From the IMG/VR virus record IMGVR_UViG_3300007734_000556, positions 1 to 30,149 of that record: a stretch of 30,149 nt of DNA; one strand, given 5' to 3'. Below, piece after piece: positions 22,839 through 25,969 of the stretch (positions are counted from its first letter, which is position 1; each line of letters starts with the position of its first letter). This DNA is from a virus. The notes under the pieces were generated by a model that saw only the letters and a program-made list of their open reading frames with translations, was not told where the DNA came from and made no database searches. The translations under genes and the position numbers were made by a program.

Positions 22839-22988
22839 ATGAAAAAAGCACTTTTGGCTTTGTGGATTGCCGTTAGCACCACGATGGTTTGGGCATCTTG
22901 CACTTACAGCACCTACACAATGAACGGGCGCATGGTGACTTGCACAACATGCTGTTATGGCAGTACTTGCAACACCACTTGCTACTAA
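22839..22988 (+). CDS. Secreted cysteine-rich peptide
   Basis: This 49-residue protein has a strong ribosome site (AAAAGGAGAAAAC before ATG). Residues 1-19 are a classic signal peptide (MKKALLALWIAVSTTMVWA) with a likely cleavage after Ala19. The mature ~30 residues contain six cysteines (SCTYSTYTMNGRMV then TCTTCCYGSTCNTTCY), so disulfides in the periplasm are expected. I recall similar peptides in betaproteobacterial phages and genomes, without known function. It lies between the Cro-like gene and the structured RNA and may act on the host envelope or superinfecting phage (inference). Confidence 0.8.
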   Translation: MKKALLALWIAVSTTMVWASCTYSTYTMNGRMVTCTTCCYGSTCNTTCY

Positions 22989-23006
22989 CAAAAAACTGTG
23001 TATAAT
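22979..23006 (+). promoter_or_regulatory. Promoter of the structured RNA
   Basis: TTGCTA (22979-22984) and a perfect TATAAT (23001-23006) are 16 nt apart. The expected transcript start (~23012-23014) coincides with the first base pair of hairpin 1 of the RNA. Confidence 0.7.
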
Positions 23007-23012
23007 TCAAAG

Positions 23013-23168
23013 CGTCTTGAGTGGCATCGAGACGTTGAGGTCAATTTAAACCCCGCAGGTTTCTGTGTGGTCTTGTCGTACAGCATGACGAGTCTTTTGA
23101 TTGACCTCAATCGTCTTGTTGTTGCTCTCGCCAAGAGCCAAGACCACAGAGCATCTTGCGGGGTTTTT
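23013..23168 (+). ncRNA. Pseudoknotted structured RNA with terminal U-tract
   Basis: Hairpin 1: CGTCTTGA (23013-23020) pairs with TCGAGACG (23027-23034). Stem A: TTGAGGTCAAT (23035-23045) pairs perfectly with ATTGACCTCAA (23100-23110). Stem C: AAACCCCGCA (23048-23057) pairs perfectly with TGCGGGGTTT (23157-23166). Stem B: TCTG+TGGTCTTG (23062-23075, TG bulge) pairs with CAAGACCACAGA (23139-23150). Stems A and B/C cross, so the fold is a pseudoknot. Small hairpins fill both loops (23076-23091 and GCTCT/AGAGC at 23124-23138). The 3' arm of stem C runs into TTTTT (23164-23168), which could terminate transcription. With its own promoter this is either an independent phage RNA or a leader controlling the genes from 23274. 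I cannot assign a known family. Confidence 0.75.
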
Positions 23169-23273
23169 GCATTTGGCAGACCGAGTGACTCGCGTTACGT
23201 TACCGGCCCTGCATGGGGTGACAAGTCAAGAAACACCGACAGCAGGACACACCCCCTGATTTGCCGAACAGCG

Positions 23274-23456
23274 TTGATTGAGCGACTGTTAAAGGATTGG
23301 GTACAACGGTGGAAACAAGGCCCAATTCATAAGCGAATCAATCCGTCCAGCGCACTTGGGGCTTTTATGTTTAACAGCAATATAAAGCCTGGAGAGGGAA
23401 GGAAAGACACAGGTCTATCCACCCTTGTCAGAACTATGGAGAAATCAAATGGATGA
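23274..23456 (+). CDS. Small basic protein before replication gene (60 aa, start uncertain)
   Basis: From TTG 23274 the product reads LIERLLKDWVQRWKQGPIHK ... SSALGAFMFNSNIKPGEGRK ... LSTLVRTMEKSNG. It looks like a compact, basic helical protein. Its stop overlaps the next gene start by 8 nt (ATGGATGA), the coupled layout seen elsewhere here. The frame stays open through the structured RNA upstream, but that part does not look like protein. The segment 23169-23273 between the RNA and this gene holds only a short palindrome (CGAGTGACTCG, 23182-23192) and no clear promoter. Function unknown. Confidence 0.45.
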   Translation: MIERLLKDWVQRWKQGPIHKRINPSSALGAFMFNSNIKPGEGRKDTGLSTLVRTMEKSNG

Positions 23457-23841
23457 CTTATTTGGAATGCCGCAGTTACCCAAAATCACCGATCAAGGCT
23501 TTGAAGAATTTTGGGAGGCTTACCCCAGATGTGACCGCAAAGGGGAAAAGTCTGCTTGCAAGAAAAAATGGGCTGAGAACTATTACTTTTACCAAGTCAA
23601 CATCATTTTGAAACACCTTGATTGGATAAAAACAACCCCTCAATGGTTACGGGACAACGGGGCGTATATTCCAGCCCCCAAGGTCTATTTGAATCAGCAA
23701 AGATGGGATGGGGCTGAGATACCCGAGGCCAAGCCAGAGCGCGACCCTGTGCTGGTGAAACTGGAAGAAGACAGGAAAAAAGCCGCCCCCATGCCAGAAC
23801 ATATCCGCGAACGTTTAGCGCAATTGCGGGGTAGCAAATGA
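23449..23841 (+). CDS. Replication-associated protein, C-terminal-domain type (130 aa)
   Basis: The start is ATG 23449, within the coupled ATGGATGA overlap. FEEFWEAYPRCDRKGEKSACKKKWAE followed by HLDWIKTTPQWLRDNGAYIPAPKVYLNQQRWDGAEIP is the pattern at the C-terminus of phage replication initiators and helicase-loader-type proteins (FWxxYPRKxxKxxAxxxW ... FIPxPxxWLNxxRWxD). Here it stands alone, without the N-terminal winged-helix domain. The tail is charged. Most likely it assists loading of the host helicase; the exact role is inferred. Confidence 0.7.
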   Translation: MDDLFGMPQLPKITDQGFEEFWEAYPRCDRKGEKSACKKKWAENYYFYQVNIILKHLDWIKTTPQWLRDNGAYIPAPKVYLNQQRWDGAEIPEAKPERDPVLVKLEEDRKKAAPMPEHIRERLAQLRGSK

Positions 23842-24077
23842 CTTATTTTGAGGCCCACCAATTGTTAGACAAATTGAAAGATGGAAATGAGAATTACTCC
23901 CGTTTCGTTATCAACCGAGCGCTTGCGCTTACTGGAGACCATGAGGCACACCGAGGCGAAAGAATGGTTACAGAGGCACAACCAGAAAATCAAGGATTTG
24001 GGCAAAGAAAAGGCGACTGCTTGGTGGCAAGCAACGATTGCGGACATTGCACGGCGCAGGGGCGAGGTTGCCGCTGA
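23838..24077 (+). CDS. Short MTYxEAHxLLD-type phage protein, C-terminus possibly run-on
   Basis: The ATG overlaps the upstream stop (ATGA). Residues 1-34 (MTYFEAHQLLDKLKDGNENY, VINRALALTGD) match a small phage protein that normally ends right after the RALxLTGD motif. Here the frame continues for ~45 more residues (HEAHRGERMVTEAQPENQGF ...) that overlap the next gene in another frame and look non-functional. The gene has probably lost its original stop, or the extension is a by-product of dual coding. Confidence 0.5.
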   Translation: MTYFEAHQLLDKLKDGNENYSRFVINRALALTGDHEAHRGERMVTEAQPENQGFGQRKGDCLVASNDCGHCTAQGRGCR

Positions 24078-24120
24078 TGACTTACGAAAGCGCATGAATG
24101 CGATACGCCGCCAGGGTTGA
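23941..24120 (+). CDS. Small basic phage protein (MRHTEAKEWL family)
   Basis: From ATG 23941 (GGAGACC before it) the product has 59 residues: RHTEAKEWLQRHNQKIKDLG, KATAWWQATIADIARRRGEV, AADDLRKRMNAIRRQG. The pattern EAxxWLxRxxxxxxxxGxxxAxxWWxxxxxxIxxxRGxxAADDLRxRMN is one I recognise from phage early regions. Starts at 23881 or 23887 are possible but would only add sequence overlapping the previous gene. It may bind nucleic acid, given its basic helices; function unknown. Confidence 0.65.
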   Translation: MRHTEAKEWLQRHNQKIKDLGKEKATAWWQATIADIARRRGEVAADDLRKRMNAIRRQG

Positions 24121-24364
24121 TGCCAACCAAGACCAGATTGTTAGCGCTTTGCGAGCCGCTGGCGCTTATGTCTGGGTTATTGGCCTACCAGTTGACCTTT
24201 TGGTGGGGTACAACGGGCATACCTTTCTGGTTGAGGTCAAAAATGGCCCCAGAAAGCGTTTAACGGCCCTACAAGCCGACTTTTTTGAAAGTTGGGGCGG
24301 AGGTACGCTGGCAAGGATTGACGGCCCTGACGGGGCTTTGAGGATGATTGGTGTTTTAAAATGA
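24098..24364 (+). CDS. VRR-NUC / resolvase-like PD-(D/E)XK nuclease
   Basis: This 88-residue protein has RVDANQDQIVSALRAAGAYVW, then PVDLLVGYNGHTFLVEVKNG with Asp33, Glu46 and Lys48 forming the D-x12-E-x-K nuclease core, and LTALQADFFESWGGG near the end. This is the compact phage nuclease family often placed near replication genes. A Holliday-junction or structure-specific endonuclease role is likely. It starts inside the preceding gene (23-nt overlap). Downstream, 24365-24393 is AT-rich and non-coding. Confidence 0.8.
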   Translation: MRYAARVDANQDQIVSALRAAGAYVWVIGLPVDLLVGYNGHTFLVEVKNGPRKRLTALQADFFESWGGGTLARIDGPDGALRMIGVLK

Positions 24365-24393
24365 AAAAAATTGAAACATTGGAGTAATAAATA

Positions 24394-25191
24394 ATGATTA
24401 CATTAATTGGTCATGGTTACATTGGCAATTACATTAAAAAAGAATTAGAGCTTAAAAATATTCATTACGAATGGATAACCCATAAACAGACTGTCCATGT
24501 TAATACGACAGCAATCATCAATGCCGCAGGGTACACAGGTTTTCCAAATGTTGATGCTTGTGAAAAATACAAACAAGAAACCATTAATGGAAATGTATTG
24601 TTTCCATTGCAATTAGAGCAAACAAACCTTGCAATTCCTATTGTTCACATTACAAGTGGTTGCGTATACACAGGATACAAAGACAATGGATGGACGGAAG
24701 AAGACGCACCTAATTTTGATTTTAGCAATGGGTCTTTTTATAGCGGGTCAAAAGTTTTGTTTCAAAAATTAATGACTCCTTACCTTAATAAATCGTATTT
24801 ATTAAGAATTCGTATGCCGTTTAGCAATACGCCACAACAAAAAAACATTCTTACAAAACTGTCAAAATATCAAAAATTAATTGATTATGAAAATTCATTT
24901 AGTGATGTGACTGATGTGGCTAGGGTTGCTGTCCATTTTGCATTGAACAAACCAACCAGCGGAATTTATAACGTTTGCAACCCAGGTTCAGTTACCACAA
25001 AACAAATTGCTAATAAACTTAAATTAAACAAAGAGTGGTTTACAAAAAATGAATTTAATGCGGCAACAATTGCGCCAAGGTCAAACTGCGTTATGAATGT
25101 TGAAAAGCTATCTGCAATTTTTCCAATAAAACACATTGATGATGCGCTAGATGCAGCTATCGGTAAATATATGATGTCAAGCCACACTTAA
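24394..25191 (+). CDS. NAD(P)-dependent sugar-nucleotide reductase/epimerase (RmlD-like SDR)
   Basis: This 265-residue protein has a Rossmann start MITLIGHGYIGNYIKKEL (GxGxxG), INAAGYTGFPNVDACE, VHITSGCVYTGY and the SDR catalytic pair Tyr116-x3-Lys120 (YSGSK). The order resembles dTDP-4-dehydrorhamnose reductases and related extended SDRs. It makes or changes an activated sugar for surface glycans. The gene is visibly AT-richer than its neighbours, with many AAA, AAT and ATT codons, suggesting recent acquisition. A ribosome site GGAG lies 13 nt upstream. It sits among replication genes and is not linked to the other sugar genes. Confidence 0.75.
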   Translation: MITLIGHGYIGNYIKKELELKNIHYEWITHKQTVHVNTTAIINAAGYTGFPNVDACEKYKQETINGNVLFPLQLEQTNLAIPIVHITSGCVYTGYKDNGWTEEDAPNFDFSNGSFYSGSKVLFQKLMTPYLNKSYLLRIRMPFSNTPQQKNILTKLSKYQKLIDYENSFSDVTDVARVAVHFALNKPTSGIYNVCNPGSVTTKQIANKLKLNKEWFTKNEFNAATIAPRSNCVMNVEKLSAIFPIKHIDDALDAAIGKYMMSSHT

Positions 25192-25195
25192 AAAA

Positions 25196-25525
25196 ATGAA
25201 ACCAGAAGAAGCGGCGCAAGCCATAAGAGACAAAGCCCAAGCCTATGGCAATGCCAAAGCCCAGCGGGTTTACCTTGATGAATTTCGCAAGGCTAAAAAA
25301 GCCCTGTTGATGAAAGATGCCCTGACTATGGGGTTTGAGGCGGCAAACGCCCAAGAGCGTGAAGCCTACGCAGACCCCGAATATCACACCCTGCTTAAAG
25401 GGCTGGGAACGGCAATAGCCCAAGAGGAAACGCTACGCTGGGAGATTGAGGCTGCAAGGCTTGACATTGAGATTTGGCGAACTCGAGAGGCCACCAACCG
25501 ACTGCAAGACAGGGCGCACCAATGA
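25196..25525 (+). CDS. Conserved phage protein, helical (109 aa)
   Basis: The product carries VYLDEFRKAKKALLMKDAL, NAQEREAYADPEYHTLLKGLGTAIAQEETLRWEIEAARLDIEIWRTREA. I recognise this as a conserved phage family with the pattern (S)KALLMxxA ... AQExxAYADPxYxxLLxGLxxAVxxEExLRWxxxAAxxxxExWRxxEA. It is a long antiparallel coiled coil by appearance. It is found near recombination and replication genes, but the function is not established. Its stop overlaps the next start (ATGA). Confidence 0.75.
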   Translation: MKPEEAAQAIRDKAQAYGNAKAQRVYLDEFRKAKKALLMKDALTMGFEAANAQEREAYADPEYHTLLKGLGTAIAQEETLRWEIEAARLDIEIWRTREATNRLQDRAHQ

Positions 25526-25707
25526 AGTGTCCAGAATGCGAGACATGGACAAGTGTGCTGGAATCTAGACAATCCACAGGCAACACCCGCAAAAGGCGAT
25601 ATGAATGTGCCAATATGCACAGGTTTTCCACATTGGAGACAATAATTGTTCGCAAAACACCAATACATAAGGTCAAAAAAGCTGCTGAAACTGGTGGCAA
25701 GCCTTGA
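25522..25707 (+). CDS. Zinc-ribbon protein (NrdR N-terminus-like, 61 aa)
   Basis: The start ATG 25522 overlaps the upstream stop (ATGA). The sequence MKCPECETWTSVLESRQSTG continues as NTRKRRYECANMHRFSTLE and resembles the NrdR zinc ribbon (CPxC ... DSR ... RRRxEC ... RFTTxE). Putative zinc ligands are Cys3, Cys6, Cys29 and His33; the last replaces the usual Cys. There is no ATP-cone domain. It probably binds DNA and may regulate transcription in the early region (inference). Confidence 0.7.
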   Translation: MKCPECETWTSVLESRQSTGNTRKRRYECANMHRFSTLETIIVRKTPIHKVKKAAETGGKP

Positions 25708-25969
25708 TTGCCAAAACTGCGGGTCTGGGAACATGGTGCAAGCGGCACACACAAACTGGGGCGGCGGCAAAGGCCGTGGGGTTAAGGCTGATGACAATCT
25801 GGTGGCTGCGCTGTGTCTGGGTTGCCATTACGCCATTGATCAAGGCAAGGATTTGAGCCGCCAGGAACGCCAAGAAATGTGGCTAAGGGCGCACATGGGA
25901 ACGATTCATGCTTTAACTGGCGCTGGACTTTGGCCTATTGACATTCCGCTACCAGATGCGAAAATGTAG
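25646..25969 (+). CDS. DUF1364 / HNH-like nuclease-domain protein
   Basis: The core is SLDCQNCGSGNMVQAAHTNWGGGKGRGVKADDNLVAALCLGCHYAIDQGKDLSRQERQEMWLRAHMGTI, reported here only by its key parts: Cys pairs (CQNC, CLGCH), a central AAH, and KADDNLVAALC. This matches the DUF1364/Ref-like phage nuclease family, in which Cys/His residues bind zinc next to an HNH-type site. The start is unclear: TTG 25646 gives 107 residues with a 62-nt overlap, while an in-frame GTG near 25691 would remove most of the overlap. It probably takes part in DNA recombination. Confidence 0.75.
   Translation: MFAKHQYIRSKKLLKLVASLDCQNCGSGNMVQAAHTNWGGGKGRGVKADDNLVAALCLGCHYAIDQGKDLSRQERQEMWLRAHMGTIHALTGAGLWPIDIPLPDAKM

What the first reader, a model, noticed from the sequence alone, without database searches (positions are those of the whole stretch)
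22979..23168. Self-contained phage RNA with a large interleaved pseudoknot
Directly visible: two sets of long complementary arms that cross. Stem A (23035-23045 with 23100-23110) is 11/11 bp. Stem C (23048-23057 with 23157-23166) is 10/10 bp. Stem B (23062-23075 with 23139-23150) is 12 bp with a 2-nt bulge. A further hairpin lies at 23013-23034, plus small hairpins in both loops. A TATAAT box ends 6 nt upstream of hairpin 1, and the 3' arm of stem C leads into five T. Such long perfect crossing pairs are very unlikely by chance, so a folded RNA is strongly supported. Because stem C is followed by U residues, folding could decide termination before the replication genes at 23274-25969. Two readings: an independent regulatory RNA, or a pseudoknot attenuator/riboswitch-like leader.
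Basis: partly seen in the sequence, partly recalled or inferred. Interest (0 to 1): 0.88.

Follow-up and report, generated by a model that had tools for sequence, protein, structure and literature searches.

The report
Pseudoknotted RNA in mobile phage cassette
A small phage RNA with its own start and stop signals folds into a knotted shape that over a hundred different phage sequences preserve, and it is the first half of an undescribed two-RNA cassette that sits at different places in different phage genomes, so it is real, widespread and of unknown function.

Summary
All three long stems are at the stated coordinates, and two perfect crossing stems of 10 bp or more occurred in 1 of 2000 shuffles. 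Homologues settle that it is an RNA: 125 distinct relatives in IMG/VR, 92 different stem-A sequences that still pair, and significant covariation against a tree-aware null. A TGTATAAT box lies exactly 6 nt upstream in 97 of 118 relatives, and the closing stem doubles as an intrinsic terminator, so this looks like an autonomous noncoding RNA gene of about 155 nt. No Rfam family matches.

The 'replication gene' start at 23274 is not a gene: that stretch is a second structured RNA (RNA2). An RNA2-like element followed in 121 of 121 testable relatives. The RNA1+RNA2 cassette is modular and moves: it lies after cro, after rep, after terminase and elsewhere, and is absent from close relatives. In some phages other RNA families, also with a covarying loop-strand pseudoknot, take RNA1's place. 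An attenuator specific to replication genes is therefore unlikely; a portable leader/attenuator role is not excluded. The biochemical function is unknown. I favour a discrete trans-acting structured RNA.

The parts
22999..23006 (+). -10 promoter element TGTATAAT (weak -35-like TTGCTA at 22979-22984)
   Evidence: box exactly 6 nt upstream of hairpin 1 in 97 of 118 distinct relatives, full 8/8 match in 60; sequence further upstream unconserved
23013..23034 (+). Hairpin H1, 8 bp, invariant loop GUGGCA (23021-23026)
   Evidence: 5 of 8 pairs covary significantly against a tree-aware null
23035..23045 (+). 5' arm of pseudoknot stem A (pairs 23100-23110)
   Evidence: 92 distinct arms among relatives, 6 of 9 tested pairs significant
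23048..23057 (+). 5' arm of closing stem C (pairs 23157-23166)
   Evidence: compensatory changes such as CCCCGC/GCGGGG to CCCCAT/ATGGGG and CCCTAC/GTAGGG
23063..23075 (+). 5' arm of stem B (pairs 23139-23149, 2-nt bulge)
   Evidence: nearly invariant in sequence; T-A to C-G change at 23068/23146 in some relatives (p=0.013, not below 0.01)
23081..23091 (+). 5' arm of helix D (pairs 23111-23121)
   Evidence: largely paired across relatives, only 1 of 11 pairs individually significant; alignment has a 1-nt register shift here
23092..23099 (+). Conserved apical linker (CUUUUGA-type) in the loop of D
23100..23110 (+). 3' arm of stem A, inside the loop of helix D
23111..23121 (+). 3' arm of helix D
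23124..23138 (+). Hairpin H4; loop GCCA (23130-23133) can kiss UGGC of the H1 loop (23022-23025)
   Evidence: kissing complement invariant in all 122 rows, so no covariation either way; analogous pairing covaries in RNA1 family 2
23139..23149 (+). 3' arm of stem B
23157..23168 (+). 3' arm of stem C plus U-run: intrinsic-terminator-like 3' end of RNA1
23175..23445 (+). RNA2 (type I): second structured noncoding RNA directly downstream (boundaries approximate); includes the spurious ORF 23274-23456
   Evidence: 19 of 27 predicted pairs have compensatory changes; reading frame broken by stops in relatives

Best explanation
Window 23013-23168 is an autonomous noncoding RNA gene (RNA1). Shown computationally: it is on the + strand, is preceded at fixed distance by a sigma70-type -10 box, and folds into hairpin H1, a closing stem C continued by B, a junction carrying helices D and H4, and a pseudoknot A between the loop of D and the strand between H1 and C. 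The closing stem C runs into a U-run and looks like the terminator. Also shown: RNA1 is always followed by a second structured RNA (RNA2), and the RNA1-RNA2 pair is a modular cassette found at different, co-oriented intergenic sites in tailed phages and absent from close relatives. Inferred: transcription starts near 23012-23013 and mostly stops at about 23168, releasing a compact RNA of about 155 nt that acts in trans, most likely by binding a host or phage protein or RNP rather than by pairing with phage mRNA; read-through supplies RNA2. Stem A appears to be a structural strut (free in sequence, fixed in pairing), while B, C, the H1 loop and H4 carry the conserved recognition surface. In short, an RNA-only 'moron'-like cassette.
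For: Stem A: own helix 7-17 bp against mostly 5-8 when arms are swapped between relatives. Tree-aware null: A 6/9, H1 5/8, C 2/10 pairs significant. 356 G-U against 67 A-C cells fixes the strand. Promoter spacing. Synteny and alternative positions. 121 of 121 followed by RNA2-like elements. Presence/absence after closely related terminases. No excess of RNA1 11-mers elsewhere in the same contig, sense or antisense, which argues against pairing with phage mRNA.
Against: No transcript data. RNA2 has no visible promoter of its own and abuts the next gene, which favours a cis leader role for the pair. The cassette was co-oriented with the next gene in every context inspected, which a cis role predicts, though compact phage genomes predict it too. 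Short seeds (<11 nt) and host targets were not tested. Stem A could be an intermolecular contact: covariation cannot distinguish the two. Mobility is inferred from position, not observed. The classification of RNA2 types rests on simple sequence patterns.
Confidence: 0.55

Rival explanations
1. Portable cis-acting leader: promoter, RNA1 conditional terminator (attenuator) and RNA2 together control transcription and translation of whichever gene follows. RNA1 folding decides whether polymerase stops at stem C.
For: RNA1 ends in a terminator-like stem directly before RNA2; RNA2 lies between it and the RBS of the next gene; RNA2 type II carries an internal copy of the sequence flanking its 3' end, often close to the RBS; cassette co-oriented with the next gene in every context inspected.
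Against: No conserved alternative (antiterminator) fold seen; downstream genes are unrelated (rep, HNH, zinc-ribbon-like, large virion-region genes, ParB-like), so no common signal; in L121 a small ORF separates RNA1 and RNA2.
Confidence: 0.28
2. Homo-oligomerising RNA: stem A (or the H1-H4 kiss) forms between molecules, giving an RNA-only assembly; its fast change keeps RNAs of co-infecting phages apart.
For: 92 different A sequences, mid-stem columns with up to 39 inferred changes while B and the H1 loop have almost none; GOLLD/ROOL form such assemblies with covarying intermolecular contacts (PMC12286853).
Against: A 1-2 nt connection between A and D and comparable A+D and B+C lengths fit an intramolecular fold (my geometric estimate); drift without sequence constraint explains the variation equally well.
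Confidence: 0.1
3. DNA-level element (palindromic protein-binding site or replication origin) rather than RNA.
For: Near rep in most members.
Against: G-U pairs outnumber A-C five to one on the + strand; fixed promoter and terminator; occurs far from rep.
Confidence: 0.03

Closest known systems
GOLLD and ROOL RNAs (large ornate phage RNAs)
   Same: Phage-encoded, highly structured noncoding RNAs with pseudoknots/kissing loops and no known protein partner
   Different: No Rfam match at all; about 155 nt rather than several hundred; comes as a two-RNA modular cassette; oligomerisation untested
Phage morons and moron-region sRNAs (EcOnc/AgvB anti-sRNAs, PMC4104026)
   Same: Small RNA gene inserted between phage genes
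   Different: Those are 51-60 nt Hfq-bound sRNAs in prophages that antagonise host sRNAs; this is a large pseudoknotted fold and carries a second RNA
HK022 put RNA / attenuator leaders
   Same: Structured RNA in the early region that could affect termination
   Different: put is two small hairpins acting in cis without its own terminator (own knowledge); this has its own promoter and terminator-like end and occurs outside the early region too
Polynucleobacter-1 RNA motif (RF01718)
   Same: Listed from Burkholderiales and fresh water (PMC2864571)
   Different: Not reported by cmscan for this region even at E<=10

Membership tests
Any Rfam 15 family | Score at or above the curated gathering threshold | tested here: not met
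   no gathering match in the window or 18 related loci; only chance-level miRNA, CRISPR-repeat, lncRNA and snoRNA matches at E 0.4-5
GOLLD/ROOL ornate RNAs | Match to the Rfam model and length of several hundred nt | tested here: not met
   RNA1 about 155 nt
GOLLD/ROOL ornate RNAs | Assembles into homo-oligomers | not testable with these tools
   needs native gels or cryo-EM
Moron (independently expressed insert between phage genes) | Own promoter and terminator | tested here: met
   (sequence evidence only)
Moron (independently expressed insert between phage genes) | Present in some and absent from other close relatives at the same junction | tested here: met
   cassette-bearing and empty junctions after terminases, most 86-91% identical to the query
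Moron (independently expressed insert between phage genes) | Expressed independently of the surrounding operon | not testable with these tools
   no transcript data
Riboswitch/attenuator leader of replication genes | Always precedes the same gene or gene class | tested here: not met
Riboswitch/attenuator leader of replication genes | Mutually exclusive terminator/antiterminator folds | tested here: inconclusive
   no conserved alternative seen in the alignment; not searched exhaustively
Phage anti-sRNA (EcOnc/AgvB) | 51-60 nt | tested here: not met
   about 155 nt from the fixed -10 box to the terminator-like end
IS110 bridge RNA (considered for RNA2) | Encoded with a DEDD recombinase | not tested
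   none noticed among the neighbouring ORFs listed, but no recombinase-specific search was run; direct flank copy found on the 3' side only
Group I intron (considered for RNA2) | Match to the Rfam group I model | tested here: not met
   no match; the element is intergenic

The most novel reading that the evidence does not exclude
The RNA1-RNA2 cassette is an RNA-only mobile element: RNA2 carries an internal guide copying the flank of its own insertion site and directs insertion or homing (perhaps with an HNH protein supplied by a neighbouring gene), while RNA1 is its transcribed, self-terminating partner whose pseudoknot gives element-specific identity.
Probability: 0.12. Interest if true: 0.96.

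Novelty: categorically new. Interest (0 to 1): 0.85.

Why it matters
It points to a large, unannotated class of phage noncoding RNA that travels as a two-RNA cassette with interchangeable parts, present in over a hundred environmental phage contigs but in no Rfam family and found by these searches in no sequenced bacterial species. It would show that phages exchange structured RNAs as modules, as they do protein morons, and it gives a well-defined covarying fold that can be tested directly by probing and mutation.

Tried and rejected
Rfam at gathering and at permissive E-values: nothing. Base-pairing targets in the phage's own genome: no 11-mer excess over other phages' contigs in either orientation. 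Protein-coding reading of 22998-23456 or 23274-23456: rejected because the stems covary and relatives have in-frame stops. Prophage hosts: two whole-collection genome scans found none. Known phages: no RNA1 family 1 in INPHARED; one spring-water phage, MW202484, has RNA1 family 2 plus RNA2 type I. Plasmids: none. Complement of the RNA2 flank repeat inside the cassette: not above the swapped control. Flank copies on the 5' side or in type I: not above control. Literature searches for such a phage RNA: nothing that describes it in the open-access library; subscription papers and preprints were not searchable.

Full report
Observation. Stem A is 11/11, stem C 10/10, and stem B pairs with a two-base bulge; A crosses B and C. 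The region folds at -77.7 kcal/mol by nested folding, z = -7.1. Two crossing perfect stems of 10 bp or more appeared in 1 of 2000 dinucleotide-preserving shuffles. So it is more than chance from the single sequence alone.

Relatives. A pattern built from stem C with a variable 85-114 nt interior hit 49 IMG/VR contigs; by my own arithmetic about one or fewer would be expected. The matches span 117-124 nt. Together with the other fetched loci these give 125 distinct sequences. None was found among one genome per bacterial or archaeal species, in INPHARED or in PLSDB (tested with a relative's cassette). No Rfam family matches. A covariance model built without stem A finds more divergent members, down to 90 bits.

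Fold. Stem A has 92 different 5' arms, yet each pairs with its own partner over 7-17 bp; swapping partners between relatives gives mostly 5-8. Substitutions in the middle of A reach 39 per column on the tree while pairing stays at 93%. Against a null that evolves columns independently on the tree, 6 of 9 A pairs, 5 of 8 H1 pairs and 2 of 10 C pairs are significant at p<0.01, at the floor p=0.003 allowed by 300 simulations. Stem C changes in a compensatory way in the set not selected on it, for example CCCCGC/GCGGGG, CCCCAT/ATGGGG and CCCTAC/GTAGGG. Stems B and H4 hardly vary, so their support is mostly consistency plus a few compensatory changes that do not reach p<0.01. Helix D (23081-23091/23111-23121) holds the 3' arm of A in its loop; it is mostly paired, but individually weakly supported because of a register shift in the alignment. 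The H1 loop UGGC and the H4 loop GCCA are complementary in every row, invariantly, so covariation cannot test that contact in this family. G-U cells outnumber A-C cells 356 to 67, which places the RNA on the + strand. My structural reading, not tested: A stacks on D, B stacks on C, and the two stacks of about 21 bp lie side by side.

Transcription unit. A TGTATAAT-like box lies exactly 6 nt before H1 in 97 of 118 sequences with enough upstream DNA, and sequence further upstream is essentially unconserved. The closing stem C runs into T5. The gene therefore has start and stop signals and should give an RNA of about 155 nt. This is inferred from sequence; no transcript has been seen.

Second RNA. 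In relatives its frame carries stops and its changes are compensatory: 19 of 27 predicted pairs show changes on both sides. It is a second structured RNA (RNA2). All 121 distinct RNA1 loci with at least 330 nt downstream are followed by such an element (in L121 a small ORF intervenes). RNA2 comes in several types that look unrelated in sequence; 72 loci have type II and 28 type I, by simple sequence patterns. Rep itself begins at about 23452.

Modularity and mobility. In most contigs the pair lies between cro and rep. It also lies after rep (L108; L173), after the terminase large subunit (L004, L009, L019, L121), and at other operon heads or junctions (L017, L024, L156, L165, L204). Among phages whose terminase is about 80-91% identical to that of L009, some carry a cassette directly after the gene and others do not. 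In several phages RNA1's slot holds a different RNA with the same plan: promoter, 5' hairpin, closing terminator stem, and a 7-bp pairing between the hairpin loop and a strand just before the 3' closing arm. That pairing has 17 loop sequences and is complete in 30 of 33 distinct cases. This makes the invariant H1-H4 contact of the present family more credible.

Function. I favour a discrete trans-acting RNA: own signals, compact fold, invariant paired sequence in B that suggests recognition, unrelated downstream genes, and no excess of matches elsewhere in the same contigs. The main rival is a portable cis leader, because RNA2 has no visible promoter and abuts the next gene. These can both be true if termination is partial. 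The fast change of stem A fits simple drift under a pairing constraint; diversifying selection is possible but not shown.

Unexplained. In RNA2 type II, the 7-8 nt after an internal GGCTCC are repeated directly after its 3' end (TTCACC), in step, across 57 distinct loci (mean match 7.65 against 4.93 when swapped). No complement of this repeat is enriched in the cassette and no such match exists on the 5' side. The flank is often close to the RBS of the next gene. It may be a guide, a decoy RBS or a remnant of insertion.

Limits. IMG/VR contigs are fragments without hosts; only open-access literature was searched, and it holds no description of this RNA. The claim 'categorically new' refers to the two-RNA mobile cassette, not to the existence of phage noncoding RNAs.

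Noticed in passing
window 23175-23445: Second structured RNA (RNA2 type I) downstream of the finding; the ORF 23274-23456 is spurious. In MW202484 the corresponding stretch is annotated as hypothetical protein UOF77725.1.
   Followed up: partly
L005, L009, L118, L140 and other type II loci (57 distinct): RNA2 type II carries an internal 7-8 nt copy of the DNA immediately 3' of its own end, changing in step with the flank.
   Followed up: partly
L053, L055, L057, L060, L074, L226 and others: Different RNA1 families occupy the same slot, with hypervariable covarying loop-strand pseudoknots (family 2: 17 loop sequences).
   Followed up: partly
L119, L173, L140, L189 downstream of RNA2: HNH endonuclease genes (Pfam HNH for the two tested) directly follow some cassettes; a small CxCGG zinc-ribbon-like protein (MRVCKCGG...) follows many others.
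   Followed up: no
window 22839-22988: Small cysteine-rich, apparently secreted peptide gene just upstream of RNA1, with homologues (about 43-84% identity) near the cassette in several relatives.
   Followed up: no
window 23452-23841: Rep protein of about 130 aa matches only residues around 170-255 of longer phage replication initiation proteins (PHROGs), so an N-terminal part may be missing.
   Followed up: no
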